Below are positions 9,455 through 34,121 of a DNA stretch of 64,000 nucleotides, piece after piece. The notes under the pieces were generated by a model, which saw only the letters and a list, made by a program, of their open reading frames with translations, was not told the origin of the DNA and ran no database searches. Source of the DNA: Sporosarcina sp. E16_8 (GTDB taxonomy: Bacteria > Bacillota > Bacilli > Bacillales_A > Planococcaceae); NCBI RefSeq assembly GCF_017347095.1, contig NZ_JADPRZ010000003.1, positions 124,001 through 188,000 on the forward strand, read 5' to 3'. The position numbers were made by a program, and so were the translations under genes. Within the stretch, counting starts at the first letter, position 1, and every line of letters starts with the position of its first letter.

Positions 9455-9458
9455 GCCC

Positions 9459-15524: not shown

Positions 15525-15537
15525 ATTTTCACCCCCT

Positions 15538-17624: not shown

Positions 17625-17632
17625 GTGACGAG

Positions 17633-18430: not shown

Positions 18431-18436
18431 GCATAT

Positions 18437-18463: not shown

Positions 18464-18476
18464 TTTTCATCATTAA

Positions 18477-18569: not shown

Positions 18570-18601
18570 GAGGCTATTACCACCACCTTTTATGTAATAG
18601 A

Positions 18602-18623
18602 AAAAACACCTCAGTGAGAGGTG
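18602..18623 (-). terminator. intrinsic terminator of the RexAB-like operon
   Basis: Minus-strand CACCTC and GAGGTG pair across TCACT and are followed by six T residues. It lies within 25 nt of the stop of the four-helix membrane protein gene. Confidence 0.85.
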
Positions 18624-18625
18624 CT

Positions 18626-19201: not shown

Positions 19202-19206
19202 AAAAT

Positions 19207-20136: not shown

Positions 20137-20518
20137 TTTAATTTCCCCTTTAACTGTATGAATTTACTGACTCTATCATACATTAACTAGGGGACTAGGT
20201 ATATCAAATGGACTAAAAAGAACACTAGTTCCGTTAATATTATATCATTTTTTCGACAATATCAAACAAAAATAACCGGCAAGTTTTAAAGGGGACTAAA
20301 AAACTCACCGGTTATATCTGATAAAATACACCCGCACAATTGACCGCGTTAGCAGCATACTTGAGTGTGTATATAAGAGGGGAAATGAGTGAGTATCGAG
20401 AAAGGCTCCAATGGCTGTAGTCGCCTGTTTTCTTTTCATCTCACAATACAATTATCGCACGTCTATCACCAAATGCTCTGCCATAATCCTGCCAAAATAC
20501 TGCCATATTATTTTAAGC
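20137..20518 (-). promoter_or_regulatory. intergenic region with terminator and AT-rich leader
   Basis: This 380-bp gap separates the HEPN gene from the RexA-like gene. On the minus strand it contains a strong terminator (next entry). Closer to 20136 it has short repeats of ACTAGG/GGACTA (20185-20225) that could be an operator. The part 20320-20470 has a 44-codon open frame (MKRKQATTAIGAFLDTHS...) without a ribosome site and is probably non-coding or a remnant. Confidence 0.5.
20265..20316 (-). terminator. intrinsic terminator upstream of the RexA-like gene
   Basis: Minus-strand ATAACCGG-TG-AGTTTT pairs with AAAACT-TG-CCGGTTAT around a 13-nt loop and is followed by TTTTTG. The stem of 14 pairs has a two-base internal bulge. 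It isolates the two-gene operon from transcription entering from the HEPN gene. Confidence 0.75.
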
Positions 20519-21781: not shown

Positions 21782-21857
21782 ATTAAACCCTCCCTTTTTA
21801 ATTACAACAATAATACTATACTTTTACAATTCCACCTAAACTACAGACAACTAAGTT

Positions 21858-22157
21858 TTATAACCATCCACGACCAGTAGATCTTCGGGAATTCCTTTTG
21901 AACATCTTCTGGGCCATCTCATGCATTTCATCTACAGGCTTCGAACGTATCAAATCCGATACATCTTTACTGATTATTTTTCGTTCACCCACCTTATATC
22001 CCTTTTCATTCAGTTCAACCGCAGCCTTTGTAACACTCTCCAACTCTACATATAGCTTGATGGCTGTTCCCTCAAACGTTTCTGGTACATATTCCTCAAC
22101 CCTCTTAATGTAATTAGTCAACGCTTCAATTTCCTTTTTAGCTTCATCGATGGTCAT
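21858..22157 (-). CDS. hypothetical coiled-coil phage protein
   Basis: 99 aa. ATG 22157 is chosen because GGGAGG stands 8 nt upstream; the ATG two codons earlier is only 2 nt from it. It begins MTIDEAKKEIEALTNYIKRV and has a charged heptad pattern, a middle LYVELESVTKAAVELNEKGYKVG, and a basic end (KRNSRRSTGRGW). Such proteins occur downstream of the late regulator in Bacillales phages. No function is known. A promoter-like TATTATAGT lies just upstream. Confidence 0.65.
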   Translation of the reverse strand: MTIDEAKKEIEALTNYIKRVEEYVPETFEGTAIKLYVELESVTKAAVELNEKGYKVGERKIISKDVSDLIRSKPVDEMHEMAQKMFKRNSRRSTGRGWL

Positions 22158-22191
22158 TTCCATATCCTCCCTTTACTCTCCTTTGGATGTA

Positions 22192-22299
22192 CTATAATAC
22201 ATAGACTGTTGCGTTCGGCATTTCCTGTAATCCCTTATTCTTTAAGGCTCTAAGTGCTTTTTTGATTATCAATGTAACATAGGCATATTTATGTGCCAT
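22192..22299 (-). CDS. possible 35-aa peptide
   Basis: An open frame from ATG 22299 reads MAHKYAYVTLIIKKALRALK then NKGLQEMPNATVYVL. Codon usage looks coding-like and the peptide is amphipathic. There is no Shine-Dalgarno sequence, so it may be the remnant of a larger gene. It fills the 160-bp gap after the tyrosine recombinase gene. Confidence 0.3.
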   Translation of the reverse strand: MAHKYAYVTLIIKKALRALKNKGLQEMPNATVYVL

Positions 22300-22319
22300 A
22301 TAGTCTAAAAAAGAATGGA

Positions 22320-22862
22320 TCAGTAATCAAAGTTTCTGATTGCCTTATCCATAATATCTTGATTTATCCCTATATATCGCTTTGTTACCTCTTCTGATGA
22401 GTGACTATATAACTCTTGTAAGAGCGCTATATTCTTCGTCCGTTCATAGAAATGGTATCCAAACGTCTTCCGCATTGAGTGTGTCCCTATGCGACTTAAT
22501 CCGCACTCTTCGCCCGCTGCACGAATAACACGATAGGCTGTCGTCCTGCTGATAGGTTTATTCACGCCTTTTCTAGACTTAAATAAATAATCCTCATCGT
22601 CCAGGTCCGCTATAAAGGGTTTGAGCTCTTTACGCAATTTAGGGCTGATAAGGATTTCTTTTTTCTTCAAGGTTTTCTTTTCGACCAATAATAGTCTTTC
22701 ACCTAAGACGTCTTTTTTCTTGATTGGTAGCATATCAGAAATCCGCAATGTCGAGTAAATTCCAAAGACAAACAACATGTGATTACGCGCGTTCGTTCTT
22801 TTTAGATAACTTTTCATTTCTTCAATTTTTTCGATATCCCGAATTGGTTCAACGAATTTCAT
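22320..22862 (-). CDS. small tyrosine recombinase (catalytic domain only)
   Basis: 180 aa, ATG 22862 after AGGAGGTG. It contains the tyrosine recombinase set: arginine in YSTLRISDML (about residue 38), HSMR with a following H in HSMRKTFGYH (about 128), H in ELYSHSSEEV and tyrosine in KRYIGI near 164. The N-terminal core-binding domain is missing, as in other short phage recombinases that sit beside late regulators. Integration is already served by the serine integrase, so a role in genome resolution or gene control is more likely. It overlaps the upstream ArpU-like gene by 4 nt, so they are coupled. Confidence 0.85.
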   Translation of the reverse strand: MKFVEPIRDIEKIEEMKSYLKRTNARNHMLFVFGIYSTLRISDMLPIKKKDVLGERLLLVEKKTLKKKEILISPKLRKELKPFIADLDDEDYLFKSRKGVNKPISRTTAYRVIRAAGEECGLSRIGTHSMRKTFGYHFYERTKNIALLQELYSHSSEEVTKRYIGINQDIMDKAIRNFDY

Positions 22863-23305
22863 TGTACTGGCACCTCCTCCTTATATACTTCCACTTTGAG
22901 AGCAAAGGCCAATTTGTAGAAAGCGCGTGATTTCAAACGGAAATAATTACGTTCAGACATATTCAGCTCGGCGTACGTTTGATAATCATACAATTCCTCC
23001 GCTTCTAAATAACGTTGCACAATTATTGCCCGCTCATCCCTTGGTAACCGATTTACTGCACGTGCAAACCAATCGATAAATCGATTCCGTTCACGTTCAT
23101 AGTCCACATTTGCAATAGCTGCTGATTCTGTCGATGAACCTGGTAGCCCACCTGTATTAAGAACTAGTGTGTAAGCGGCTGTAATGGATGGTAGTCTATC
23201 TAAATTTGTTTGGAGTAGGTACATTCTGTATTTTTCCAGCAACGATTCCACGGTTTCCCTTGTCGATTTACGGTCAATCTCCGGTAAAATGAATTGCATT
23301 TGCAT
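22859..23305 (-). CDS. ArpU-type late transcription regulator
   Basis: 148 aa. ATG 23305 is preferred because GGGAGG lies 8 nt upstream. It has the ArpU/RinA layout: an N-terminal segment (TRETVESLLEKYRMYL), the middle TAAYTLVLNTGGLPGSS, and a C-terminal sigma-region-4-like helix-turn-helix (LPRDERAIIVQRYL; YQTYAELNMSERNYFRLK). Proteins of this family activate late genes of phages in Bacillales, Enterococcus and Staphylococcus. It sits at the early/late boundary, directly after a strong terminator, as expected for a switch gene. Confidence 0.85.
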   Translation of the reverse strand: MQMQFILPEIDRKSTRETVESLLEKYRMYLLQTNLDRLPSITAAYTLVLNTGGLPGSSTESAAIANVDYERERNRFIDWFARAVNRLPRDERAIIVQRYLEAEELYDYQTYAELNMSERNYFRLKSRAFYKLAFALKVEVYKEEVPVQ

Positions 23306-23324
23306 ATACATTTCCTCCCTTTTA

Positions 23325-23380
23325 GATAAAATAAAAAGGACGCCAAACGACACGCAGTAATTGCGTATCGTTCGACGTCC
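23325..23380 (-). terminator. strong intrinsic terminator before the ArpU-like gene
   Basis: On the minus strand GGACG-(TC)-GAACGATACGC and GCGTGTCGTTTGGCGTCC fold into a stem of about 17 pairs around an AATTACT loop, followed by TTTTTATTTTAT. It separates the small genes 23445-23781 from the late regulator. The regulator therefore needs its own promoter or read-through. Confidence 0.85.
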
Positions 23381-23444
23381 TCAGGCTTTCCGGTCTTGGA
23401 CTTATTCTGTTACATTCATCATACCATGTTTTTATGTAACATGA

Positions 23445-23645
23445 CTATATTAGATATTCTCCGACTAATTTCACTTTATGTGCTTTACCTTTCGCAGTTT
23501 GAATCGTGGTCTCGCCGTGCTGTGGGAGCTGTATAAGCTTAATAGTTCCGCTCACTCCGTCAAGCACGATGATTTTCACTTTACCCGTTTCGAGATCGGC
23601 AAATTCATTCGTTTTATGCGTATAATCTACGATATCAACATGCAT
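23445..23645 (-). CDS. XtrA/YqaO-like small phage protein
   Basis: 66 aa. ATG 23645 is chosen because AGAGGTG lies 5 nt upstream. The end LIQLPQHGETTIQTAKGKAHKVKLV matches the motif LP-HGET-I-T--GK--RV of the PBSX XtrA / YqaO family, which lies close to the ArpU-like gene in defective prophages of Bacillus. Function is unknown. Confidence 0.7.
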   Translation of the reverse strand: MHVDIVDYTHKTNEFADLETGKVKIIVLDGVSGTIKLIQLPQHGETTIQTAKGKAHKVKLVGEYLI

Positions 23646-23649
23646 TAAC

Positions 23650-23781
23650 TCACCTCTTTCCCCAATTTCGCTCATATTCTTTTTCTAGTTTATCATCATC
23701 CATTTTTTCTAACGCTTCCCGATTCCACATCGTCCACATTAGCAGCCACTCAATCATCGAACTGCGTTGGTCCTCAGTCAT
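23650..23781 (-). CDS. small hypothetical phage protein
   Basis: 43 aa from ATG 23781, or 47 aa from an ATG at 23793. It reads MTEDQRSSMIEWLLMWTMWN then REALEKMDDDKLEKEYERNW. The tryptophan-rich helix followed by an acidic helix is typical of tiny proteins near the early/late junction. Its stop is 4 nt from the start of the XtrA-like gene, so they form one transcription unit. Not recognised. Confidence 0.55.
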   Translation of the reverse strand: MTEDQRSSMIEWLLMWTMWNREALEKMDDDKLEKEYERNWGKR

Positions 23782-23849
23782 TAATATTCCCATCCCTCAT
23801 GATAGCTGTTTTATTATTCTTGATGTCGATTTATGTCGAACGAATGGGA

Positions 23850-23878
23850 TTGATAATTTAATATTTTCAGATTATAAT
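23850..23878 (+). promoter_or_regulatory. sigma-A promoter, near-consensus
   Basis: TTGATA (23850-23855), a 17-nt spacer and TATAAT (23873-23878). It drives the plus strand, against the surrounding minus-strand genes, into a short unit that ends at a terminator about 180 nt downstream. Confidence 0.8.
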
Positions 23879-23950
23879 AAAGGTGGATATAGAGTAGACC
23901 CTATGGACCTAATCAACCCAAATAATCACGGGTCGCAGAAAGTGATTAAT

Positions 23951-24049
23951 ATGCAAATCAACATTACTATTACAGTAAAAGTTGACCCGCGCGCGATTAA
24001 CATTCTCGTCGCGGTAGGCTCCATAGCCGCAAAACTGCTCGGTCTCTGA
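23951..24049 (+). CDS. putative 32-aa hydrophobic peptide in a short plus-strand unit
   Basis: ATG 23951 starts MQINITITVKVDPRAINILV then AVGSIAAKLLGL, an amphipathic to hydrophobic peptide. The same frame is open from ATG 23903 (48 aa), but neither start has a strong ribosome site. The stop codon lies within the terminator stem. The unit has its own consensus promoter and terminator. It could be a type I toxin-like peptide, a short regulatory RNA, or both. I do not recognise the family. Confidence 0.45.
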   Translation: MQINITITVKVDPRAINILVAVGSIAAKLLGL

Positions 24050-24063
24050 CCGGGCTTTTTGTT
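24037..24063 (+). terminator. intrinsic terminator of the short plus-strand unit
   Basis: GCTCGGTC pairs with GACCGGGC around TCT and is followed by five T residues, G and TTT. It overlaps the stop codon of the 32-aa peptide. Confidence 0.85.
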
Positions 24064-24094
24064 TATTGCTACCCCGTACGAATGAGGTGATTAC

Positions 24095-24310
24095 ATGACA
24101 GAAAAACCAAGGCTTGTTGTTAAGAGTGAAAATGAAACCGGTTTAAATACTCACTTCTTGGATACTAAAACAAAGGAAGTAATAACCAGAGGAGATCTCG
24201 CAAAACGAATCAATAAGGGTGAATATCCTGATTACCACGTTGCAAAAGTCAGTGGTAGAAATATCATTAAATCCAACCCTGATGGTAATAAGAAAAATAA
24301 CTTAGACTAA
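24095..24310 (+). CDS. DUF3892-like small protein
   Basis: 71 aa, ATG 24095 after GAGGTG. The pattern NTHFLDTKTKEVITRGDLAK, IKKGEY-type spacing (INKGEYPDYHV), VSGRNIIKSNPDG and the NNLD end match DUF3892-type proteins common in Bacillales. No activity is known for the family. It is plus strand, next to the short unit at 23.9-24.06 kb and against the direction of the replication genes, so it belongs to the cargo. A separate promoter was not identified. Confidence 0.65.
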   Translation: MTEKPRLVVKSENETGLNTHFLDTKTKEVITRGDLAKRINKGEYPDYHVAKVSGRNIIKSNPDGNKKNNLD

Positions 24311-24442
24311 AATACGTATTGGGGTAGCAATAATATTTTCAATATCCGTAACCCTGCTTCACATGAAATCTCGCATTTTTCTCCATGTAGATTGGTTTAT
24401 TTTGATTTAATTAGTCACGCCGTATGGTCGAACTGCGTACTA

Positions 24443-24628
24443 CTAATTCTTCTTTTTATAGACATCAATGCGTTTTACAGCTTGCTCACCATGCGTTCCA
24501 GTTTCAATTTGAGAGCCGGACATACCTACTGGATAACCTCTACTCATGAGGAAATCGAAAACTTCTTTCGCTATTGCTTCGTTGTGGCAATAAATAATAT
24601 ACTCCATGTTTGAAAACTGTACTTCCAT
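24443..24628 (-). CDS. hypothetical small protein
   Basis: 61 aa from ATG 24628, 7 nt after AAAGGAG. It reads MEVQFSNMEYIIYCHNEAIA then KEVFDFLMSRGYPVGMSGSQ, an alpha/beta pattern of a small single-domain protein. Upstream, the sequence AGAAAGG is repeated three times in tandem (24635-24657), giving three Shine-Dalgarno-like cores. No family recognised. It is the only minus-strand gene between two plus-strand cargo genes. Confidence 0.55.
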   Translation of the reverse strand: MEVQFSNMEYIIYCHNEAIAKEVFDFLMSRGYPVGMSGSQIETGTHGEQAVKRIDVYKKKN

Positions 24629-24760
24629 TTCCATTCTCCTTTCTCCTTTCTCCTTTCTACCACATATTTTGTGTCACCCGTGACTCAGTTTGGTCGAAAT
24701 GCGCAGCTATGATATTACTTTTTCAAACTCTGGTATACTATCCAAAAAGGGGATGAAATT

Positions 24761-25567
24761 ATGGATCCAATTACAATCGGAACAGCAATCGGCACTTCAT
24801 TAATTACAAGTTTCGCTACTAAGGGAGACAGTGAGCCAATCAAAACACTTAACGATATTTGGTATCTCGCATTTGGGAGAATGCAGTTATTTGCTGATAA
24901 AAAACGTGCCAAAAATAAGACTTTTTTAGACGTATATCAAAATGAGTTGGTACAAGAAATATCTGCTATACCAGAAGAAAACTTAATTGAACCACCTCTG
25001 AGTATTGTTGGTCCCGCATTAAATTCAGCTCAGTATTATATTGAAGAGGAAGTACTTCGAAAGATGTTTTCTAAAATCATTTCTTCTTCAATGGATAATA
25101 GGAAAAGTTCACGGGCGCATCATGCTTTTGTCGAGATTATAAAGCAACTTTCTCCATTAGATGCTAGTAACTTAAAAGTCTTCCAACATAGAAATAAGCT
25201 ACCCATTGTAAACTATGGAATTAACATAGGGTTTAATGGAAATGTTATATTTCATCCCCATGTCTTTATACACAACCAAGACTGTAACGATTCAGATGCT
25301 ATTGCGAGTTCATTGATAAATTTACAGCGATTAGGTCTTATCAATATTGAGTATTCAAAGGGTTTTCTTGACGAAGAATTATACAAAGACTTTGATAGTC
25401 ATGAATTATTGGATAAAATCTCCAAAATGATTGATTCCGATGAGTTTTCCGAGAACGCCGAACTGTTACGCGATGTAATTAATCTCGAGCATGTCAGTAC
25501 TAGGATTGAAAAAGGCACAGTTGAAGTAACTCCGTTAGGCAAGGATTTTATATTTACCTGCCTATGA
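24761..25567 (+). CDS. DUF4393 / Abi-alpha family protein, candidate phage-resistance factor
   Basis: 268 aa, ATG 24761 after AAAAGGGGATG. The central region follows the DUF4393/Abi-alpha pattern: IPEENLIEPPLSIVGPALNS, then EEVLRKMFSKIISSSMDN, then HHAFVEIIKQLSPLDASNLK. The N-terminus (MDPITIGTAIGTSLITSF) is mildly hydrophobic. Its C-terminal half includes a winged-helix-like LINLQRLGLINIEYS and ends in VEVTPLGKDFIFTCL. The family is named for abortive infection, mechanism unknown. It is alone on the plus strand, with a TATACT -10 element at 24732. The stop overlaps the convergent gene at 25562 by 6 nt. Confidence 0.75.
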   Translation: MDPITIGTAIGTSLITSFATKGDSEPIKTLNDIWYLAFGRMQLFADKKRAKNKTFLDVYQNELVQEISAIPEENLIEPPLSIVGPALNSAQYYIEEEVLRKMFSKIISSSMDNRKSSRAHHAFVEIIKQLSPLDASNLKVFQHRNKLPIVNYGINIGFNGNVIFHPHVFIHNQDCNDSDAIASSLINLQRLGLINIEYSKGFLDEELYKDFDSHELLDKISKMIDSDEFSENAELLRDVINLEHVSTRIEKGTVEVTPLGKDFIFTCL

Positions 25568-25732
25568 GCGGATGTTTTTTATTGCACGTAACGTTTCAAT
25601 TTTAACTTGTTCAATTTCTCGTATAAAATGCTCGTCCGTTTTTTCTAGTTCATCCATAAAGTTATCAAACAATCGATGAGTAATAATTATGACTGTAATG
25701 GTAGAAAAAATAACGCTTACTATTACAGTCAT
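25562..25732 (-). CDS. small membrane-anchored phage protein
   Basis: 56 aa from ATG 25732: MTVIVSVIFSTITVIIITHR is a transmembrane segment, followed by LFDNFMDELEKTDEHFIREI and a charged helical tail. The only good ribosome site (GGAGGTGACAGG) serves a 5-codon frame METIN whose TAG abuts this ATG (TAGATG), so translation would be by re-initiation. Function unknown. Confidence 0.6.
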   Translation of the reverse strand: MTVIVSVIFSTITVIIITHRLFDNFMDELEKTDEHFIREIEQVKIETLRAIKNIRS

Positions 25733-25800
25733 CTAGTTAATTGTTTCCATCCTGTCACCTCCAATAACTTCGCAGTTTGTTTCAACGCATCACTACAAAA

Positions 25801-26010
25801 TCAATTCACCGCGGAATAACTATCAATCGAATACGAATTACCGCACTTCTGACAATACAAACTGGAATGTTGTGAATCTCCGTCAAAGATTCTTAACGGC
25901 TTTTTAAAAGGCGTACCATCACTTTTTATTTTATAAATCCGTTCTTGCAATCTGAATTCCGCATAGGTCAATTCCGTTCCGCATTCACATTTAGGGACCC
26001 CGTAAACCAT
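25801..26010 (-). CDS. zinc-ribbon phage protein
   Basis: 69 aa, ATG 26010 after GGGGAGGGTG. Two cysteine pairs, CEC near residue 8 and CQKC near residue 54 (LYCQKCGNSYSIDSY), should bind zinc. The middle (RIYKIKSDGTPFKKPLRIF) is basic. Small zinc-ribbon proteins are common in early regions of gram-positive phages. Function unknown. Confidence 0.7.
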   Translation of the reverse strand: MVYGVPKCECGTELTYAEFRLQERIYKIKSDGTPFKKPLRIFDGDSQHSSLYCQKCGNSYSIDSYSAVN

Positions 26011-26047
26011 TCCATCACCCTCCCCTGTTTAGGCTGGTGTTCATCAC

Positions 26048-26176
26048 TCATTTCGTAACCACCTTCCATCCCCGTTTTTTCATCCAAGTCAATTCCGCGT
26101 TCCCGAATTGATCATACAGCCATGCCCTTTGGATCCCTTCCAAGCGTGTCAAGAGTCGATACGGTTTATCGTTCAT
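26048..26176 (-). CDS. small hypothetical phage protein
   Basis: 42 aa, ATG 26176 after GGGAGGGCA. It reads MNDKPYRLLTRLEGIQRAWL then YDQFGNAELTWMKKRGWKVV. Basic and aromatic, with no recognised domain. It is part of the row of tiny genes downstream of the helicase loader. Confidence 0.6.
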   Translation of the reverse strand: MNDKPYRLLTRLEGIQRAWLYDQFGNAELTWMKKRGWKVVTK

Positions 26177-26217
26177 TGCCCTCCCTCATTTCCGTTTAGT
26201 CGTCATCCTGACATTGC

Positions 26218-26385
26218 CTAGCATCGTTCTTCCTGCCAGTTACGTTCGTAATTCACTTCGGGTAAGATAAATATCGGGAAATAGCAACTACATTCGTAAC
26301 ACGCTTTAATTTCAAGCTGTTCGTTGCCTTCCACTTGATTGTGGACTTCCATAATTTCTTTTGATTTGCAATTAGGGCATCTCAT
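26218..26385 (-). CDS. small zinc-finger-like phage protein
   Basis: 55 aa from ATG 26385 with AAAGGAG upstream. MRCPNCKSKE near the N-terminus and CYECSC in the middle give two cysteine clusters that could bind zinc. The sequence ends VNYERNWQEERC. Early-gene position; function unknown. Confidence 0.65.
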   Translation of the reverse strand: MRCPNCKSKEIMEVHNQVEGNEQLEIKACYECSCYFPIFILPEVNYERNWQEERC

Positions 26386-26422
26386 AGTACACGCTCCTTT
26401 TAAAGCGAATAATCACTGGTAT

Positions 26423-26566
26423 TCATTCGTTCACTGCGCGTTTAACCGCTAGTAGACTACGCAATGAGTAATAGTCCATTTCATACAACGACTCACCATT
26501 CCGTCCACTAGAGACCTTCAACGCAACCAATTGGTCGATGATGTATTTCTTTTCTACTCGTTTCAT
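26423..26566 (-). CDS. small hypothetical phage protein
   Basis: 47 aa, ATG 26566: MKRVEKKYIIDQLVALKVSS then GRNGESLYEMDYYSLRSLLA. Two short helices with a basic N-terminus, similar in layout to Fur-regulated-like or small Gp49-type phage proteins but not identifiable. Its start overlaps the stop of the next upstream gene by 4 nt. Confidence 0.6.
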   Translation of the reverse strand: MKRVEKKYIIDQLVALKVSSGRNGESLYEMDYYSLRSLLAVKRAVNE

Positions 26567-26715
26567 ACCGTTTGCCCCTTTCGATTTGCCCAATAGCGTT
26601 CTGCCATTCGGATTTTCACTTCAAGTTCGTTCATTTCGCGTTTTAGCTTGTCCGCGTCATAAGGTTTAGTTGATTGGACGAGGTAAAGTCCTGGCCCTTG
26701 AATCCAATTAGGCAT
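26563..26715 (-). CDS. small hypothetical phage protein
   Basis: 50 aa from ATG 26715, with GGGAGG 8 nt upstream. It starts MPNWIQGPGLYLVQSTKPYD and continues as a charged coiled-coil helix (LKREMNELEVKIRMAERYW). It is immediately downstream of the helicase loader and overlaps the next gene. Unknown function. Confidence 0.6.
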   Translation of the reverse strand: MPNWIQGPGLYLVQSTKPYDADKLKREMNELEVKIRMAERYWANRKGQTV

Positions 26716-26739
26716 ATTTATTGCCTCCCAGTAGTAGTA

Positions 26740-27672
26740 TTATCGGAACAGCAATTTTTCCAATTCCGCATTTTCGCTATCCGCTTCATCGTCACGCACA
26801 GGTTCTTCCGGCATGTATATTTCCAGTGCCATTTTTTTGATACGCTTATTAACACGACCGCCCGGATAAATCCTTTCCAACTCGTCAATTGTCACGTTTG
26901 ACGTAAAGATTGTCGGTTTCCTATGTTCTAGCCGAAAATCGGTAATGTCGTAAAATATACCTTCATCAAAAACGGTTGCTTCCTTTATTGCCAAATCATC
27001 AATTACTAACAATTCAACGTTACGGAAAGTTTTGATGATGTCACTTCTTGTCGTTTCCGATGTTTTGTTCATAGTATTATGAATTTGAGTGATTAAATCG
27101 CCTGACTTAATAAAGGCGATATCAATTCCATACGTTTTCACAAGTGCATTTGCGATACTGGATGCCAGCCTTGTCTTACCGGACCCCTTGACTTTGCTAT
27201 ACAGATACAAGCCCTTTCCTTGCTTTTTCATAGCTTCGTAGTTAGTAACGTAATTTCCAGCTGCTTTTTTCGCCATCGCCGCTATTCCTTGATTTTCTTT
27301 CGACTTAAATTTATTAACATCATAGGACCTTACTGTTGCGTCACTAAATATCGGAGGAATGCCGGACAAGTCTAACTTTTTATCAACCTCACGTTGCTTT
27401 ACCAGTTGTTCATAGCAATCACAATGGGCTAACCATTCTCCTTTTATCCAGTTGCCTTCCTCGTCTTGTTCATCCTTCTTGTTTAGACGAGACCAATCTT
27501 TAAACCACAACCATCCTTTTCCGTCACATTTCTTATACGGACATAGTTCAGACGGGATCGTCATTATCTCGATCGGATTGGATGCCAGCGATTCTCTTAC
27601 GTCGTTCATTCGTTTCGCTAATACGGGATTGTCTTTCATCATGCTTTGGATCACTTCGCTCAGAGGCTTCAC
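26740..27672 (-). CDS. DnaC/DnaI-type helicase loader
   Basis: I place the start at GTG 27672, as AAGGAGGG lies 7 nt upstream within a longer frame that begins at 27693. The 310-aa protein has an N-terminal zinc-binding part (CPYKKCDGKGW; HCDCYEQL). The AAA+ domain starts near residue 150: Walker A SKVKGSGKTRLASSI, Walker B VELLVIDDLAIKE, sensor TIFTSNVTIDELE, arginine finger region GGRVNKRIKKM. It loads the host or phage replicative helicase together with the preceding replisome organizer. The start lies inside that gene in another frame, so expression is coupled. Confidence 0.9.
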   Translation of the reverse strand: MKPLSEVIQSMMKDNPVLAKRMNDVRESLASNPIEIMTIPSELCPYKKCDGKGWLWFKDWSRLNKKDEQDEEGNWIKGEWLAHCDCYEQLVKQREVDKKLDLSGIPPIFSDATVRSYDVNKFKSKENQGIAAMAKKAAGNYVTNYEAMKKQGKGLYLYSKVKGSGKTRLASSIANALVKTYGIDIAFIKSGDLITQIHNTMNKTSETTRSDIIKTFRNVELLVIDDLAIKEATVFDEGIFYDITDFRLEHRKPTIFTSNVTIDELERIYPGGRVNKRIKKMALEIYMPEEPVRDDEADSENAELEKLLFR

Positions 27673-28465
27673 TGCTTGTCCCTCCTTTTTCATTTAAGTA
27701 GGATTCGAATTTTGTGCCAAATAAAGTTTCTGGTCGAAGATAACCCGACATCTTTGAATCAGTAAGCCACTGGGATGTTTTAATGTCGATAACCTTCTGA
27801 AAGTCATCAACTGTGAAACCTTCATTCAAGCGAGCTTTGATAAGTCCTTGCGTCTTCTTTCCGGATGCTCTGTAACTTGTTTTTGCTCTCTCGTTCAGAT
27901 AACTAATAATTTCTTCGAAAGGAAGAGAAGGAGCGTCAGCGACAATTACTTTCTTTTTCTCTTCTTCTCTTTCTTTCTCTAGTTCTATATCTAGTTCTAT
28001 ATCTAGTTCTAATTCTAGTTCTGTAGAGTCATGTGACGTCACGCTAACGTCATCGCTATTACTCAATAGAAGGTTTTCGTTTTTCTTGCGTTCCCTGAAC
28101 TTGCGATTTCGCTCTGCATTAAGAAGTTTCGCACGTTCCATACCCTCTATATTCTGATGTGATTCCCAATTGCTAATCTTTACTTTTCCATCATCTTTAT
28201 AAATCATGCCGTAGCGTTCAAATGTGGAAATCGCTAACCGAACAGTGTTCAATGGACGATTGAAAATAGTAGCCATTTCCTCTGTATTCATAGGAATATT
28301 CTCTGTCAACATGATGTAACCTCCTGCATTCGCACGTCCTGCATGAGTTAGTAGCTTTACCCAAATGACAATCAATGTGTCGGCATCGGGTAATGCTTCA
28401 ATTAATTTGATTTTTTCATTATCAAACATATCTGTTTTCAATTTAATCCATGTGATTTCACTCAA
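27548..28465 (-). CDS. phage replisome organizer
   Basis: 305 aa, TTG 28465 after AAAGGAG. Residues 1-120 are the winged-helix replisome organizer N-domain (ITWIKLKTDMFDNEKIKLIE; AISTFERYGMIYKDDGKVKI). Residues about 150-170 are an acidic repeat ELELELDIELDIELEKE made by four 12-bp DNA repeats. Residues 185-265 follow the phage conserved C-domain (IISYLNERAKTSYRASGKKT; LIKARLNEGFTVDDF). The protein binds the phage origin and recruits the helicase loader. The origin probably lies in the gene itself at the repeats. Confidence 0.85.
   Translation of the reverse strand: MSEITWIKLKTDMFDNEKIKLIEALPDADTLIVIWVKLLTHAGRANAGGYIMLTENIPMNTEEMATIFNRPLNTVRLAISTFERYGMIYKDDGKVKISNWESHQNIEGMERAKLLNAERNRKFRERKKNENLLLSNSDDVSVTSHDSTELELELDIELDIELEKEREEEKKKVIVADAPSLPFEEIISYLNERAKTSYRASGKKTQGLIKARLNEGFTVDDFQKVIDIKTSQWLTDSKMSGYLRPETLFGTKFESYLNEKGGTSSEASERSDPKHDERQSRISETNERRKRIAGIQSDRDNDDPV
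27979..28026. repeat. four 12-bp direct repeats, candidate replication origin iterons
   Basis: CTAGTTCTATAT occurs twice exactly, followed by CTAGTTCTAATT and CTAGTTCTGTAG, without gaps. They lie in the middle of the replisome organizer gene. A 10-bp palindrome GTGACGTCAC follows at 28033-28042. In many gram-positive phages the initiator binds iterons within its own gene, so this is a candidate phage origin. Confidence 0.6.
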
Positions 28466-28547
28466 ATTAGGAACTCCTTTCCGACTTGCATTACTAGGTG
28501 CTCTTATATAAAGTGATAGTAAGTATATTTAAAGAGCCCCACCAAAC

Positions 28548-28572
28548 TCGCTGCTCTAACAGCGGGTTTTTT
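28548..28572 (+). terminator. terminator-like hairpin, plus orientation
   Basis: CTCGCTG and CAGCGGG pair around CTCTAA and are followed by six T residues on the plus strand. It lies in a minus-strand operon between the clamp-like and replisome organizer genes, so it would stop only antisense transcripts. Confidence 0.45.
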
Positions 28573-28584
28573 CAATTTTTCACG

Positions 28585-29229
28585 TCAATAAGTCCTAACA
28601 GGAAGGATCAATGTCCGTACCGCTTTGTCATCGTCCATGATTATCGGTTTCACCGGACCACGGAAGTGGAATGTTAATTGCTCTGAATTTAGCTTCGCGT
28701 GTGCTTCCAGTGCGTCCCTCATGTATTCAACCTGGAATGAAGTAGCCTCCATGTCCGGCTTTTGATAAACCTCGTGTGGTAATTGAATAATGAATTTGTG
28801 GACAGACAACTCGATTTCAACGTGATTTTCTTTAAAACACATTTTCGCGATACCCCTACGTTCCTTCATAATTCGCATCGTTTGATTCATCGACCTGAAC
28901 AACTGCAACCACAATTTAATGTGCTCTTTCGACAAAACAATAGATTCTGTGTATTCTTCGAGACCGCTTAATTTATCCGTATCCGGGTAATGTCCTTTTG
29001 CGAAAGTAAAGTTTTTAGGGTCTACTAAGAACTCTTCTTTAAACCCATGAATATTTCTGATGTGAATCAATCTGTGACTGTCTGTAGCCACGATATCGCC
29101 GGCAACTGTATGTTGTGCAAAAAGCAAGACGGGACGACTATGTTGTGTGCTCACCCATTTCTTAACGACATCCATTGCCACCCCGTATAAATCGCCATGA
29201 ACGAATTCTAAACTGCTAACTTTCCCCAT
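28585..29229 (-). CDS. phage sliding-clamp-like protein (DnaN-related)
   Basis: 214 aa, ATG 29229 after GAAGGAGG. VATDSHRLIHIRNIHG corresponds to the TDSHRLA signature of bacterial beta clamps. The C-terminal LNSEQLTFHFRGPVKPIIMD followed by TLILPVRTY matches the clamp domain 3 ending (..IMPVR). It is about half the length of DnaN (about 378 aa), so it may have two clamp domains and assemble with more subunits, or act as a decoy binding clamp partners. It sits upstream of the replication initiator genes. Homology by eye. Confidence 0.6.
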   Translation of the reverse strand: MGKVSSLEFVHGDLYGVAMDVVKKWVSTQHSRPVLLFAQHTVAGDIVATDSHRLIHIRNIHGFKEEFLVDPKNFTFAKGHYPDTDKLSGLEEYTESIVLSKEHIKLWLQLFRSMNQTMRIMKERRGIAKMCFKENHVEIELSVHKFIIQLPHEVYQKPDMEATSFQVEYMRDALEAHAKLNSEQLTFHFRGPVKPIIMDDDKAVRTLILPVRTY

Positions 29230-29253
29230 GAAAATTCCTCCTTCAATTCTTTT

Positions 29254-29922
29254 TTATGAAATTTGTTTCGGAATCCAAGCATCTACGTAGTAAATAGCTG
29301 ACTGGAGATCTTGATGCTTAACGTCTTTGTACGAAGTGACACCGAAACGGTCTTTAATTTCGCGATATAATTCACTAAACAAGCGTTTTCGAGCATCTAA
29401 ATCTTTTTCAACTGCATATATTCTTGCGCCAACCGCTCTCTGCAATCTCCGTTGTTCCCCATGATCTAAAGTTATTTTATTTTCGACCATGCTTCGAATT
29501 TCGGAGACATCTTCTTTCACCTGTTCCAACTCCTCAGAAGTTTCTAGGCTTAATCGCATCGATGCTTTTAATTGTTCAGCAGCGCTTAAAATCTTAGGCG
29601 CATTTAATGTTTTCTCCATTTCTCCGAAGCGACTCACATATGCAGCGGTAAAAAGGACACCTTTTTCGCCAGTCATCTTGTTTGCGACCATATCGCACCC
29701 GGCCCGAGTGAGTAAAAAGCAGGGGCGTAGTTGATTCCTGACATCGTAATATGTGCTTTCAACAAAGAATTTCTCAGTCCCGTAATCTCGGGGCTGAAGG
29801 ATTTCTAAATACTTCCTAATATCAGCAAGTAAATGGTCGTGTCTTTTATCTACCATTTCAGCGACATCTCGACTATCGGCGACTAGTTGACCATGAATAG
29901 ATACCACTTTTAATTCATTCAT
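29254..29922 (-). CDS. Rha-type antirepressor with ORF6C domain
   Basis: 222 aa, ATG 29922. Residues 1-110 follow the Rha pattern: VADSRDVAEMVDKRHDHLLA, CFLLTRAGCDMVANKMTGEK, then TAAYVSRFGEME. Residues 115-222 are ORF6C-like: KITLDHGEQRRLQRAVGARI and HQDLQSAIYYVDAW. Such proteins are DNA-binding early regulators or antirepressors in lambdoid and gram-positive phages. Its start overlaps the upstream stop by 4 nt. Confidence 0.85.
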   Translation of the reverse strand: MNELKVVSIHGQLVADSRDVAEMVDKRHDHLLADIRKYLEILQPRDYGTEKFFVESTYYDVRNQLRPCFLLTRAGCDMVANKMTGEKGVLFTAAYVSRFGEMEKTLNAPKILSAAEQLKASMRLSLETSEELEQVKEDVSEIRSMVENKITLDHGEQRRLQRAVGARIYAVEKDLDARKRLFSELYREIKDRFGVTSYKDVKHQDLQSAIYYVDAWIPKQIS

Positions 29923-30287
29923 CCCTCAACCACCTGCACTTTCCGCTGAATATACTCCCACTGGTCTGGAATGGTTGTTTTTAAATCGGCGATTTCGGCA
30001 ACTGACATCACTGCAATGAATTCCACTCCACCGATTTCCGCTTTTAATTCGTAAGGATAATCAGGGCTATCATCAACTTCAATATCGAACTCCATGAATT
30101 CTATTAAAAAAGTGATAGATTCCAAATGCACGTGTGATTTGTTTGCGTTCACACTGACACCGATTACATCCCGTTCAGAATCATCCAAGATTGATTCTAG
30201 TTGCTGCACCAGTGTTGAAATTTCATATAATGATAATGCAGCAACCTCAGCACGTTTTTTCCCACTCAACCCTTTGATATTATTCAT
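29919..30287 (-). CDS. hypothetical early phage protein
   Basis: 122 aa from ATG 30287, 9 nt after GAGAGGTGG. A longer frame upstream lacks a ribosome site. It begins MNNIKGLSGKKRAEVAALSL and includes YEISTLVQQLESILDDSERD, then a beta-rich half (IEVDDSPDYPYELKAEIGG; EFIAVMSVAEIADLKT). No family recognised. It is translationally coupled to the Rha gene. Confidence 0.6.
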   Translation of the reverse strand: MNNIKGLSGKKRAEVAALSLYEISTLVQQLESILDDSERDVIGVSVNANKSHVHLESITFLIEFMEFDIEVDDSPDYPYELKAEIGGVEFIAVMSVAEIADLKTTIPDQWEYIQRKVQVVEG

Positions 30288-30310
30288 TTCATTTCCACCT
30301 CTCATTTTGA

Positions 30311-30391
30311 TTACTTTCGTGAAGCAAAGTACAGTAGTACCAATTTCTGCTCCAGTGATAGATTGTTCCAAGCTTTTATCTTGATGGACAT
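30311..30391 (-). CDS. putative 26-aa peptide
   Basis: ATG 30391 after AAAGGATGTG starts MSIKIKAWNNLSLEQKLVLL followed by YFASRK. A short amphipathic helical peptide in the early operon, between the Cro-proximal gene and the 122-aa gene. Translation is plausible but unproven. Confidence 0.4.
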   Translation of the reverse strand: MSIKIKAWNNLSLEQKLVLLYFASRK

Positions 30392-30408
30392 TGAGAATCA
30401 CATCCTTT

Positions 30409-30561
30409 CTAAGCGCTCAATACTTCCAGTGCTTCGTTTACTTCCGCCCACAACACGCGTAACGGCTTCGTACCTTCTCCCCAAGCTCTTAATATGCCAA
30501 GCGCTATTTCCGGTTTGTCCACTGCTAGCTCAGCCAATTTAACTGGTAGATAAGCATTCAT
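30409..30561 (-). CDS. small hypothetical early phage protein
   Basis: 50 aa from ATG 30561 (AAAGGA 10 nt upstream): MNAYLPVKLAELAVDKPEIA then LGILRAWGEGTKPLRVLWAE. The frame is open further upstream to 30693, so a GTG or longer start is possible; that part would overlap the Cro gene. Helical, no domain recognised. Second gene of the early operon after Cro. Confidence 0.5.
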   Translation of the reverse strand: MNAYLPVKLAELAVDKPEIALGILRAWGEGTKPLRVLWAEVNEALEVLSA

Positions 30562-30610
30562 CTTAATTAAATCCTTTGGTATAACCACGACAGACAGCCC
30601 CTCGCAATAT

Positions 30611-30850
30611 TTATAAAGTGGCACAATGTTCTTCTGGACTACAGAAATTCTGTAGTTGACCTGCAAAAAAAATGATGCTATCAAATGAAACATTTACATT
30701 TTGCGCAAATCTATAACCTTGATCCATCCGGAATACCCGACGATATTTTTCGTATTGAATGTACGTTTTCTCAGACATCCTCATACATTTAGCCATCTCA
30801 ATTTGAGTTAAGCCCGTAAGGATTCTTGCTTGTTCTAAAGTGTATTTCAT
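30611..30850 (-). CDS. Cro-like XRE-family regulator
   Basis: 79 aa, ATG 30850 after AAGGAGGTGAG. Residues 5-60 form an XRE helix-turn-helix: LEQARILTGLTQIEMAKCMR followed by MSEKTYIQYEKYRRVF. The C-terminus is short and lacks a dimerisation domain. It is divergent from the CI-like repressor, so it is the lytic regulator that starts the early operon. Its promoter carries an operator in the spacer. Confidence 0.8.
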   Translation of the reverse strand: MKYTLEQARILTGLTQIEMAKCMRMSEKTYIQYEKYRRVFRMDQGYRFAQNVNVSFDSIIFFAGQLQNFCSPEEHCATL

Positions 30851-30873
30851 TCCCGCTCACCTCCTTGTATTGA

Positions 30874-30902
30874 ATATTACTACAGATTAAATGTAGTTTC
30901 AA
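30874..30902 (-). promoter_or_regulatory. early (cro) promoter with operator in spacer
   Basis: On the minus strand TTGAAA (30902-30897), a 17-nt spacer and TAATAT (30879-30874). The spacer is exactly the inverted repeat CTACA-N7-TGTAG. A repressor bound there would occlude RNA polymerase. Confidence 0.8.
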
Positions 30903-30987
30903 GTCGAAAGTACAGATAATATGTAGAATAAACAATAAATGATTATAAAGTTTCATAAATACTGTACCTTTCTACAGTATTACTGTA
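30880..30987. promoter_or_regulatory. repressor/Cro operator cluster
   Basis: Four inverted repeats share TACAG/CTGTA half-sites. They are 30880-30896 (CTACA-N7-TGTAG), 30910-30926 (GTACA-N7-TGTAG), 30961-30978 (ACTGTA-N6-TACAGT) and 30973-30987 (TACAGT-ATT-ACTGTA). The last two share a half-site. They fill the 163-bp intergenic switch between cro and the repressor gene. Confidence 0.8.
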
Positions 30988-31013
30988 CAATAAAACAAAG
31001 GAGGTGCTAAAGT

Positions 31014-31628
31014 TTGAGTGTAGGTCAAAAGATTAGGACGCTTAGAAAAAATAAACAGTTAACACAAGTGGAACTTGCGAAGATACTAAACCTTGCTCCT
31101 ACTGCTGTTTCAGCTTGGGAGCGCAATGCTAATAAGCCAATGATGGATAAAATTGTAATGATGTCAGAGTTGTTTGAGGTACCAGTTACTCATTTCTTTG
31201 ATTTAAAGGATGGGTTATCCAACATAATAGAGGTATCGCAACGAACTGTTCGTATTCCGGTACTTGGTGAGATCGCTTGCGGTGACCCTATCCTTGTGGA
31301 AGCGAATTATGAAGATTACCGCACAGTATTAGAAGAAAACCTTCCAGCAGGAGATTTAGTATATCTTCAAGCGAAAGGTGATTCGATGCATCCGACGATA
31401 CCAAATGGCTCAATGGTATTGATACGAATTCAAGAAGAAGTGGAAAATGGCGAAATAGCAGCTGTAACATTTAATCTAAATGCTTATGCCACACTGAAGA
31501 GAGTTAAAAAGCAAAATGGCATAATTATATTGATGCCAGATAATCCATCACACGAACCAATCGTTGTTACAAGAGAAAATCCAGTAAGAATAATTGGAAA
31601 AGCGATTAGGTCCGAACAAACACTTTAA
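31014..31628 (+). CDS. CI-like repressor with S24 (LexA-type) peptidase domain
   Basis: 204 aa, TTG 31014 after AAAGGAGGTG. Residues 5-60 are an XRE helix-turn-helix (QKIRTLRKNKQLTQVELAKI; APTAVSAWERN). Residues 80-204 are the S24 self-cleavage domain: cleavage site in GEIACGDP (Cys89-Gly90), nucleophile Ser124 in KGDSMHPT, and Lys162 in ATLKRV. It keeps the prophage silent and should be cleaved after DNA damage through RecA. The scissile pair is Cys-Gly instead of the commoner Ala-Gly, as in several Bacillales repressors. Confidence 0.9.
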   Translation: MSVGQKIRTLRKNKQLTQVELAKILNLAPTAVSAWERNANKPMMDKIVMMSELFEVPVTHFFDLKDGLSNIIEVSQRTVRIPVLGEIACGDPILVEANYEDYRTVLEENLPAGDLVYLQAKGDSMHPTIPNGSMVLIRIQEEVENGEIAAVTFNLNAYATLKRVKKQNGIIILMPDNPSHEPIVVTRENPVRIIGKAIRSEQTL

Positions 31629-31648
31629 TTCCAACCGGTTGCAATTAA

Positions 31649-31691
31649 AAAGAAAAGAGCAGTTCCTCATTCGGAATACTGCTCTTTTCTT
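31649..31691. terminator. bidirectional terminator between repressor and integrase
   Basis: AAGAAAAGAGCAGT and ACTGCTCTTTTCTT flank TCC-TCATTC-GGA and form a stem of about 17 pairs with a one-base bulge. It separates the repressor gene from the integrase. Confidence 0.8.
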
Positions 31692-31710
31692 ATAGAAAGG
31701 AATATGCAGA

Positions 31711-33555
31711 ATGTACAACGTTCTCAGAGTGGCTATCTATATCCGCGTATCATCCAAGATGCAAGAGGGTAATTTTAGTTTGAGCGCCCAAACGCACGAA
31801 TTAACTAAGTACTCAAACGCCCAGGGCTGGGAAATAGTCGACGTTTACAAAGATGCCGATAGTGGAACTAAACTTGATAAAGATGGACTGGAAGCGATGT
31901 TAGACGCCATAGAAGAGGGATTAGTGGACATAGTGCTATGCATCGAACAAGATCGCCTTTCACGCCTGGACACAGTCAAATGGGAATACCTTAAAAGCGT
32001 ACTTCGAGATAACGATGTTAAAATAGCTGAGCCGGGCAGTATTGTGGATTTAACTAATATAGATGACGAATTCGTATCTGATATTAAAAATCTGGTAGCG
32101 CAACGGTCGCGAAAAGACATGTTACGAAAAATGGCGCGCGGAATAAGACAGCGAACTCGCGAAGGCAAAGTTTGGGGTCCTCAACCTGAGGAATACCACT
32201 ACGATAAAGCGACCGGATTATTGAATATTAATGAGAAAAGGGCCTGGATAATACCGTTCATTGACGGAAAGTACCTAACAGAAGAATTGAACCCTACTGC
32301 CATCGCAAGGGAGTTAAATAAAAGATGTAAAACCGCCGAAGGCAAAGAGTGGACTGATTCCCAAGTTGTCGATAAATTAAAACGCAAAGCGTATCACGGA
32401 GACTTTGAACGAAAATTTAAAGCTGAAACGATTACCGTGCCGAATATTTATCCGAAATTAAGAACGGAAGAAACTTTTAACCGGATACAAGCCGAGATCG
32501 AAAGAAGGTATAATTGGAAGCCCGCAGCACCTCATATACTGCGAGGTATAGATATTAATTGTGCAAATTGTAGAAATGCCTTAACCATCAGTAAGTCTAC
32601 TGCCTCCGACAATAGTGGTAATCAGGAGTACATCACATACACATTAGAACACTCAGGTTATTGGAAGCAGAAGGACAAATGCAGCAGCAAGCCCTTCATT
32701 AATGTAAAACGAATCCAGCACAATTTGAAAGTTGCTGTGAAGGATATTCTTACAGACCCAGAAAAAGCGAAGCTCTATATAGATTCCGGGTTTGATGCTG
32801 ACGAAGTTTCTAAATTAAGCAAAGAAATCAAGAGACTCGAAGCTCAAAAGCAAGCAGTCCAAGAAAAAACAGACCGCTTACTGGATCTGTACCTCGACGG
32901 AAAATGGTCGAAAGAACGACTTGATGGCAACCGTGTAAAATTAGCCTCCCAGCTCGCTTATTTAGAAACGGATTTAAAGGATCTGCAACAGAAACGTAAA
33001 TTAATTCAAAAAAACCAACTTAATTATGATTCTGTGTCAGAGTTTCTTGCTGTGGCCGAGCGCTTTGAGGATTTGTTAGATGTGGAAGACCAGCAACGTT
33101 TATTAGGTAGCCTATTCCCTTCGGCGACCTTAGATGTCGAAAAAGAGTTAGTGACCTTACACGCCTATCTGCCGCAAGAAGTAACCGTAGATATAAAAAT
33201 TAGGATTGATACGACTCAAGAGATGAGAGACCGGGAGACGTTTGAACGGTCCAAGATTCGACATGACCGAGCGCAAAAGCATTTGAACAAACATCGAGGA
33301 TTAACTATGAAGGATTTAGGTTTGGCGGTTGGCCATCAACCATTTATTTTAAAGCAAGACCAGGAACGTTTCGGACCATTCAAACATTTGGCTCGTCATT
33401 GGAGCAGTCCGGAATTAAGACAAGAAAGAGTTAATGCGATAAAGAAAGAATTGGCGATAAACCCAAAAGCGAGTCTGAGAAAACTCGCAGAAGATACGGG
33501 GATATATCGAAAAATGATTAGTAAATTGATAGAGGAAGAGAGCTTGAGACCTTGA
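31711..33555 (+). CDS. int: large serine integrase
   Basis: 614 aa. The resolvase domain starts YIRVSSKMQEGNFSLSAQ with catalytic Ser14, then IEQDRLSR and RKMARGIRQRTREGK. The recombinase domain (GPQPEEYHYDKATGLL; NPTAIARELN) is followed by a zinc-ribbon INCANCRNAL and KDKCSS, and a coiled coil near residues 370-450. An extra C-terminal helix-turn-helix (PKASLRKLAEDTGIYRKMIS) is seen. This is the recombinase that integrates and, with a directionality factor, excises the prophage. It ends about 70 nt from the junction with comGA, the usual place for the attachment site. Confidence 0.95.
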   Translation: MYNVLRVAIYIRVSSKMQEGNFSLSAQTHELTKYSNAQGWEIVDVYKDADSGTKLDKDGLEAMLDAIEEGLVDIVLCIEQDRLSRLDTVKWEYLKSVLRDNDVKIAEPGSIVDLTNIDDEFVSDIKNLVAQRSRKDMLRKMARGIRQRTREGKVWGPQPEEYHYDKATGLLNINEKRAWIIPFIDGKYLTEELNPTAIARELNKRCKTAEGKEWTDSQVVDKLKRKAYHGDFERKFKAETITVPNIYPKLRTEETFNRIQAEIERRYNWKPAAPHILRGIDINCANCRNALTISKSTASDNSGNQEYITYTLEHSGYWKQKDKCSSKPFINVKRIQHNLKVAVKDILTDPEKAKLYIDSGFDADEVSKLSKEIKRLEAQKQAVQEKTDRLLDLYLDGKWSKERLDGNRVKLASQLAYLETDLKDLQQKRKLIQKNQLNYDSVSEFLAVAERFEDLLDVEDQQRLLGSLFPSATLDVEKELVTLHAYLPQEVTVDIKIRIDTTQEMRDRETFERSKIRHDRAQKHLNKHRGLTMKDLGLAVGHQPFILKQDQERFGPFKHLARHWSSPELRQERVNAIKKELAINPKASLRKLAEDTGIYRKMISKLIEEESLRP

Positions 33556-33650
33556 TAAAGGTACCTTTATGCCTTGGTGGATAAACTAACGTATTAACAT
33601 GCTTTTATTCCTCGGCATACTACGCAATGTGCTGTTAAAGAGTAGATAGT
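33556..33650. other. prophage-chromosome junction (attL or attR) inside comGA
   Basis: ComGA homology on the minus strand stops around 33630-33650, just after its Walker A motif. The integrase gene ends at 33555, so the crossover lies in this interval. The core cannot be fixed without the other prophage end. Serine integrases use short att sites with a 2-nt core. Confidence 0.7.
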
Positions 33651-34121
33651 GGTCGTCTTCCCGCATCCAGTTGGACCGGTCAGTATAATTAATCCTTGCG
33701 GCTCTGATACAGCCTGGCGTAATTTATCGGCCCACTCTTTTTCAATGCATAATTCATCAATTGAAACGATTTGGTCATGCCTTTGCAATCGTATAACAAC
33801 ACTTTCTTTCATTTGAATCGAAGGGATTGTTGAAACTCGGAAAGAATAATTCTCACCTTGTATCTGTTTATGAAAAGAACCACTTTGGGGTTTACGCTTA
33901 TCGCTAATATCGAGTGAGGATAGGAATTTGTAAAATGAAATCATGCGGCCCGCCAACTGTGGGGGAAGAATACCGGACCGGTCCAGCCTTGAATCTTTTT
34001 TGAACGACACATCATATCCTTCCTTCATAGGAACGAGATGAATGTCAGTCGCTTCGTACTTAATTGCTTTCTCTAAAAGTTGAAAACTTTTCTTCTCAAC
34101 AACGTTTTCATTGTTAATCAT
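33594..34121 (-). pseudogene. comGA: comGA, interrupted by the prophage
   Basis: ATG 34121 after GAGGGGTG. 175 residues are present of about 350 expected. The sequence has the traffic ATPase N-terminal domain (AIKYEATDIHLVPMKEGYD; FRVSTIPSIQMKESVVIRLQ) and Walker A TGPTGCGKTTTIY at residues 148-160. About residue 163 it runs into prophage DNA and ends TAHCVVCRGIKAC. ComGA powers assembly of the competence pseudopilus for DNA uptake. The rest of comGA and comGB-GG must lie beyond the other end of the prophage. Loss of Walker B and the C-terminal domain makes the product inactive. Excision would restore the gene. Confidence 0.9.

What the first reader, a model, noticed from the sequence alone, without database searches (positions are those of the whole stretch)
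33556..34121. Prophage insertion directly after the Walker A motif of comGA
ComGA continues to TGPTGCGKTTTIYSL and is then replaced by prophage sequence ending TAHCVVCRGIKAC. The serine integrase gene lies next to the junction. This is comparable to Listeria comK and to com-gene prophages in streptococci and lactococci, where excision may control competence. The P-loop region is well conserved at the DNA level, so it makes a stable phage target.
Basis: partly seen in the sequence, partly recalled or inferred. Interest (0 to 1): 0.72.

Follow-up and report, generated by a model that had tools for sequence, protein, structure and literature searches.

The report
Prophage splitting competence ATPase gene comGA
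A 39-kb bacterial virus has inserted itself, cleanly and in a way that could be undone, into the gene for the motor that its host would need to take up DNA; this adds a well-mapped case to a known habit of phages rather than a new kind of system.

Summary
comGA is cut in two by a 39,373-bp prophage. The 5' part is in the window (34121 down to 33622, minus strand); the 3' part lies left of the window on the same contig (from C3:118250 downward), followed by comGB-comGF. TAHCV is ComGA's own sequence: 13 of 19 relatives read it there. The break is 11 codons after the Walker A GKT, at codon 167, with a 2-bp core GT. Joining the flanks gives an uninterrupted 335-aa ComGA. The reconstructed attP is a palindrome centred on that core (23 of 30; reached by none of 39,293 other centres) and resembles the candidate attP of a metagenomic phage whose integrase is 73% identical. 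No second comGA was found. ComK-family and ComEC genes are present. comGA prophages are already published for Staphylococcus pseudintermedius, and relatives of this integrase hit comGC. The claim that P-loop DNA is unusually conserved is not supported. Excision-controlled competence is possible but untested. New member of a known kind.

The parts
33622..34121 (-). comGA 5' part, 500 nt including the GT core, start ATG at 34121 to the first two bases of codon 167
   Evidence: NCBIfam NF041000 ComGA profile positions 2-152 matched by residues 14-166, E 8.7e-43 (below the whole-protein cut-off, as expected for a half gene); 96% identical to the closest uninterrupted orthologues
33597..33621 (-). 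phage-derived end of the truncated ComGA frame: third base of codon 167 plus VCRGIKAC; stop codon at 33594-33596
   Evidence: comparison with uninterrupted relatives; sequence
33622..33623 (.). crossover core AC (GT in comGA sense), junction on the integrase side
   Evidence: identity block between the two junctions and the relatives' empty site; palindrome centre
31711..33555 (+). large serine integrase, 614 aa; 66 bp lie between its stop codon and the core
   Evidence: Pfam PF00239 and PF07508; phrog_95; distance
31014..31628 (+). CI-like repressor
   Evidence: phrog_4, E 9.4e-40; 67% identical counterpart before the integrase of phage contig L137
29254..29922 (-). anti-repressor
   Evidence: phrog_373, E 2e-49
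26740..27693 (-). DnaC-like helicase loader
   Evidence: phrog_50, E 2.2e-49
15538..17196 (-). terminase large subunit
   Evidence: phrog_9, E 2.6e-129
14358..15572 (-). portal protein
   Evidence: phrog_12, E 5.5e-51
13630..14361 (-). head maturation protease
   Evidence: phrog_94, E 4.9e-76
12397..13587 (-). major head protein
   Evidence: phrog_10, E 6.1e-36
10171..10761 (-). major tail protein
   Evidence: phrog_117, E 1.3e-15
5012..9454 (-). tail tape measure protein
   Evidence: phrog_1272, E 2e-182
1..33623 (.). the part of the 39,373-bp prophage that lies inside the window; it runs on left of the window to C3:118249-118250, where the comGA 3' part, comGB, comGC, comGD, a 99-aa ORF in the comGE position and comGF follow
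   Evidence: endolysin and holin left of the window

Best explanation
A temperate tailed phage integrated by its own large serine integrase into comGA of a Sporosarcina-group host, at codon 167, using a 2-bp GT core. Shown by sequence: both gene halves, both junctions, the palindromic attP, an in-frame empty site, and head, packaging, tail, lysis, replication and repressor genes. Inferred: the cell makes at most a 175-residue ComGA stub that lacks the second half of the ATPase, and comGB onward is separated from the sequences upstream of comGA by 39 kb of phage, so the competence pilus is not assembled and the lysogen cannot be transformed. Precise excision by the integrase with a directionality factor would rebuild comGA without a scar. 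The most likely reason why such insertions recur is that blocking transformation protects the prophage from being replaced by homologous recombination (the hypothesis of PMC4774983); this step is not tested here.
For: Second comGA half in the same orientation 39.4 kb away on one 279,626-bp contig. Flanks joined at GT give one open frame, 335 aa from the ATG at 34121, matching relatives. attP symmetry 23 of 30 at the core, reached at none of 39,293 other prophage centres. A 41.8-kb phage contig (L083) with a 73% identical integrase carries, just after it, a candidate attP with the same ...TACT-AC-AGTAA core; repressor and two small ORFs precede the integrase in the same order, and a gene beyond the candidate attP has a weak match to the other end of our prophage. 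A ComGA frame of at least 298 aa spans the matched N-half in 66 of 67 other genomes of the genus; in the 67th (G212) only a weak hit was found (counted by eye). Late genes have the expected PHROGs hits. ComK family (3 hits) and ComEC (767-aa frame) are present. Integrase relatives insert in comGC, another gene of this operon.
Against: No expression, transformation or excision data. Natural competence of this host is unknown, and no ComK-box-like AAAA-N5-TTTT lies within 600 bp upstream of comGA here. A separate PilB-like and PilT-like pair exists and might in principle supply an ATPase. In the same integrase family the nearest host-located relatives lie beside an mrfA-like helicase and not in a com gene, so an anti-competence purpose is not a constant of the family. 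Target labels on the integrase tree are no more clustered than in shuffles.
Confidence: 0.88

Rival explanations
1. Neutral accident: the integrase happens to recognise a sequence in comGA, and loss of competence is a tolerated side effect with no selective benefit to the phage.
For: The closest host-located relatives of the integrase sit beside an mrfA-like helicase. Of 68 genomes of the genus the insertion was seen only in this one, G212 being unresolved.
Against: Within one integrase family two genes of the same operon, comGA and comGC, are hit, and comGC needs two changes on the tree (separate gains, or a gain and a loss). A distant serine integrase (28% identical) sits in comGA at another position in G248. 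These com-gene hits were not compared with a random expectation.
Confidence: 0.3
2. Active lysogeny: the prophage excises without lysis when the host needs competence, rebuilds comGA, and reintegrates, so it is a genetic switch of the kind described for Listeria comK (as told in PMC7029219, passage read).
For: Excision would be scarless and in frame; repressor, anti-repressor and integrase frames are open; both comGA halves show no stop or frameshift, and syn:nonsyn counts are in the range of those among intact orthologues.
Against: Scarless repair is a property of any precise serine-integrase insertion. Constraint on both halves may only reflect the time before insertion. No attB or attP form in the assembly. 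The phage carries genes for ordinary virion production and lysis. No directionality factor was identified.
Confidence: 0.1
3. Assembly artefact or dead prophage remnant.
For: Draft assembly of 138 contigs.
Against: Both junctions lie inside one contig; the core, the attP palindrome and the related phage's candidate attP agree; 19 of 20 sampled phage frames match phage families.
Confidence: 0.02

Closest known systems
Prophage SpST71A in comGA of Staphylococcus pseudintermedius ST71 (PMC7029219; passages read, abstract in part), also phiAI14-Pro1 (PMC8297860; passages read)
   Same: A prophage (about 44 kb for SpST71A) lies in comGA; SpST71A splits it in the middle (509 + 479 bp; here 500 + 508 nt) and is proposed to abolish competence.
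   Different: Different host, a pathogen; its integrase and exact codon could not be compared here; no att core is given in the passages read.
comYC/comGC prophages of streptococci, lactococci and Macrococcus (PMC4774983, PMC6008420; passages read)
   Same: Prophage in the comG (comY) operon. Relatives of the present integrase (about 37-43% identical) insert near the start of comGC; the Macrococcus phiMC1 att CATTTCAATTAAAGT resembles the junction of L066.
   Different: Target is the pilin gene comGC, not the ATPase gene comGA.
Listeria comK prophages with A118-type integrase (PMC4774983 and PMC7029219 passages; A118 record)
   Same: Serine-integrase prophage in a competence gene, restored by excision (as told in those passages).
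   Different: Target is the regulator comK; the A118 integrase is 24% identical over 80% of ours and lies outside the family on the tree.

Membership tests
Serine-integrase prophage | Large serine integrase: Resolvase catalytic domain plus Recombinase domain | tested here: met
   PF00239 E 3.1e-22 and PF07508 E 1e-10
Serine-integrase prophage | Short att sites with a 2-bp core and symmetric attP | tested here: met
   GT core; attP palindrome 23 of 30 centred on it
Serine-integrase prophage | Integrase recombines attP x attB; a directionality factor allows excision | not testable with these tools
   needs an assay; no directionality factor was identified
Competence-gene-disrupting prophage | A com gene is split and both halves flank the element | tested here: met
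Competence-gene-disrupting prophage | No other intact copy of the gene | tested here: met
   the other two strong hits score best as GspE/PilB and PilT, not ComGA; one further weak hit, E 1.5e-4, was not examined
Competence-gene-disrupting prophage | Lysogen is not transformable | not testable with these tools
   needs a transformation assay
Active lysogeny switch | Regulated excision without lysis that restores the gene | not testable with these tools
   in-frame restoration shown in silico only; no attB or attP in the assembly

The most novel reading that the evidence does not exclude
One family of phage serine integrases has repeatedly evolved new att specificities that land in different genes of the same comG operon (comGA here, comGC on what may be two separate branches), which would mean selection on phages to reach the competence pilus itself, with this prophage acting as a reversible off-switch for DNA uptake.
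Probability: 0.2. Interest if true: 0.55.

Novelty: new member of a known kind. Interest (0 to 1): 0.3.

Why it matters
It gives an att-mapped comGA prophage outside staphylococci, with a defined crossover core, a reconstructed attP, a metagenomic phage relative and empty-site relatives 96% identical over the N-half. That makes the idea that phages attack transformation testable outside pathogens. The integrase family, whose members target comGA, comGC and other genes, would suit a study of how serine integrases change target.

Tried and rejected
Considered and dropped: that TAHCV is phage sequence; that the P-loop is exceptionally conserved DNA; that a second comGA exists. G259 has a 185-aa ComGA frame, but tblastn runs through it as one piece and the rest of the operon follows, so it is likely a point lesion and not an insertion. 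ComGA as query found no viral contig carrying comGA pieces, and in the phage collection gave 39 records, all under 60% identity, not followed up. A wider search by order returned 261 genomes, as many as by family, so it added no breadth. A paper search for Sporosarcina, prophage and comG found none. A recollection that Brochothrix phage NF5 uses comGA could not be checked (one search found one unrelated paper) and is not used. The exact codon of SpST71A was not compared because no S. pseudintermedius comGA was fetched. An idea that the phage replaces the last codons of the mrfA-like helicase was dropped: in the five loci tested, the helicase aligns to residue 756 or 758 of the 758-residue S. 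luteola one.

Rows left out of the integrase tree: L087, L088, L093, L094, L096, L098 and L100 (taken for near copies from their scores, not measured); the broken or split integrases of G181, G175, G211, G221; and all hits under about 38% identity except three chosen as outgroup (A118, DCC1738, G248). Labels comGC for L063, L064, L066, L089 and L092 rest on junction sequence and neighbouring genes read by eye; L065 rests on a ComGC match from residue 3 beside the integrase. The label tests on that tree are weak: comGC alone is as clustered in 126 of 500 shuffles, and all labels together in 200 of 200.

Full report
What is there. The window is C3:124001-188000 of a 4.38-Mb draft genome in 138 contigs. 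A ComGA reading frame on the minus strand starts at ATG 34121 and closes at 33594. Its residues 14-166 match positions 2-152 of the 267-position ComGA profile NF041000. The rest of ComGA (profile positions 161-266) lies left of the window in the same orientation, in an ORF at C3:118229-117741, followed by comGB, comGC, comGD (55 bits, below its cut-off of 70), a 99-aa ORF in the comGE position that matched no profile, and comGF. A shikimate-kinase-like ORF comes next; that name is recalled and was not searched.

Exact junctions. Orthologues in the closest relatives (96% identical over the N-half) read IYSLTAHCVNHLERHVITLEDPVEN without a break. Against them, one junction reads ...CACATTGC-GT-AGTATGCC and the other ...GGCTTACT-GT-CAATCATC, so GT is the block shared by both (AC on the plus strand, window 33622-33623 and C3:118249-118250). 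Core to core the element is 39,373 bp. Joining the flanks at GT gives one frame, 335 aa from the ATG, 500 + 508 nt.

Independent support for the core. attP rebuilt from the two ends is a near-palindrome centred on AC, 23 of 30 arm positions; shifts of 1 to 6 bases give 5 to 14, and none of 39,293 other centres in the prophage reaches 23 (highest 20). A 41.8-kb viral contig (L083) carries an integrase 73% identical, with ...CTTACT-AC-AGTAAAG... just after its stop codon, 75% identical to our attP over 64 nt and 19 of 30 palindromic (2 of 11,759 centres of that locus, itself included, reach 19). Two small ORFs, the repressor and the integrase stand in the same order in both, and a gene beyond the candidate attP has a 69-aa match (39%) to the other end of our prophage; no other match was found in the 17.8 kb compared. 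That this contig is an unintegrated phage using the same host site is inferred.

The element. Terminase, portal, head protease, major head and tail proteins, tape measure, endolysin, holin, helicase loader, CI-like repressor and anti-repressor were found among 20 sampled proteins, 19 of which match a PHROGs family. It also carries a second, tyrosine-type recombinase (window 22320-22862) and an Abi-alpha gene (24761-25567).

How it most likely works. The integrase recombined attP with the comGA site. The lysogen keeps a ComGA stub without the second half of the ATPase, and comGB onward are cut off from the sequences upstream of comGA. A terminator-like hairpin near the phage end points toward the comGA 3' part (1 found against 0.8 expected, so weak). 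Loss of transformation is inferred from what ComGA does in other bacteria, not measured. ComK-family genes (three hits) and ComEC (767-aa frame) remain. The syn:nonsyn changes of the two comGA halves against G202 (18:7 and 48:9) lie near those between two intact relatives (27:6 and 42:12), and neither half has a stop or frameshift; this fits a recent insertion.

How common. In the 67 other genomes of the genus, 66 have a ComGA frame of at least 298 aa that spans the matched N-half and P-loop, and the last (G212) gave only a weak hit (read by eye; the row table is cut, so the wider family was not fully counted). In the family, G248 carries a second, independent comGA split: residues 3-247 stand beside a 28%-identical serine integrase, and residues 244-333 followed by comGB-comGF lie about 40 kb away. 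Integrases related to ours (about 37-43% identical) sit at comGC in G048, G163, G077 and G043, and in Bacillus haynesii and probably Listeria portnoyi. The nearest host-located relatives are in five genomes of the genus: whole in G176, broken in G181, G175 and G211, split over two contigs in G221 (pieces 49-73% identical). In four of the five the end of an mrfA-like helicase lies within about 35 bp of the integrase, in G175 2.3 kb away (MrfA Zn-binding domain tested in S. luteola only). The genus is called Sporosarcina by inference: contigs of G176 and G221 match named Sporosarcina records in length or position. The tree places ours with L083 (100/100) and then S. luteola (95/99); comGC needs at least two changes, but label clustering is not beyond shuffles.

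What is known. comGA prophages are published in S. pseudintermedius (PMC7029219, PMC8297860), comYC/comGC ones in streptococci, lactococci and Macrococcus (PMC4774983, PMC6008420), comFA and comK ones too (PMC4774983); for all of these I read passages found by term and not the whole text. PMC3948429 was also looked at (passages) and has no such insertion in them. The paper searches were made; no listed title or abstract beginning describes a Sporosarcina comGA prophage, but only openly licensed papers are held and the lists are capped.

Verdict. A real, cleanly mapped prophage in comGA; a new member of a known kind. The switch reading is open.

Noticed in passing
window 22320-22862: The prophage carries a second recombinase gene of the tyrosine type (PF00589, phrog_216) far from the att site; its role is unclear.
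   Followed up: partly
window 24761-25567: Abi_alpha (PF14337) gene on the plus strand inside the prophage, also matching PADLOC candidate PDC-S47: a possible phage-borne defence gene.
   Followed up: partly
window 18626-21781: Three prophage ORFs (191, 309 and 420 aa) with no Pfam or PADLOC match, between an HNH endonuclease gene and the tyrosine recombinase gene.
   Followed up: partly
G000:C67:6628-7074, C38:18394-18828, C45:25147-25566: Three ComK-family hits in one genome; B. subtilis is the only one of 14 control genomes with any.
   Followed up: no
G000:C6:94760-96786 (L001, L002): A separate PilB-like and PilT-like pair, suggesting a type IV pilus besides the competence pilus.
   Followed up: partly
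G248:C1:2273537-2313780 (L058, L160): Independent comGA split by about 40 kb with a distant serine integrase, at a different position in the gene, with comGB-comGF after the far half.
   Followed up: yes
L059 7833-10134; L049, L055, L057: Relatives of the integrase lie within about 35 bp of the end of an mrfA-like helicase in four genomes of the genus, some of them broken.
   Followed up: partly
window 34122-34721: No AAAA-N5-TTTT ComK-box-like site in the 600 bp upstream of comGA; 9 of 19 relatives also had none in the 660 nt taken.
   Followed up: partly
G259:C15 (L028): ComGA frame of only 185 aa although the gene aligns as one piece, so competence may be lost there by a point lesion.
   Followed up: partly
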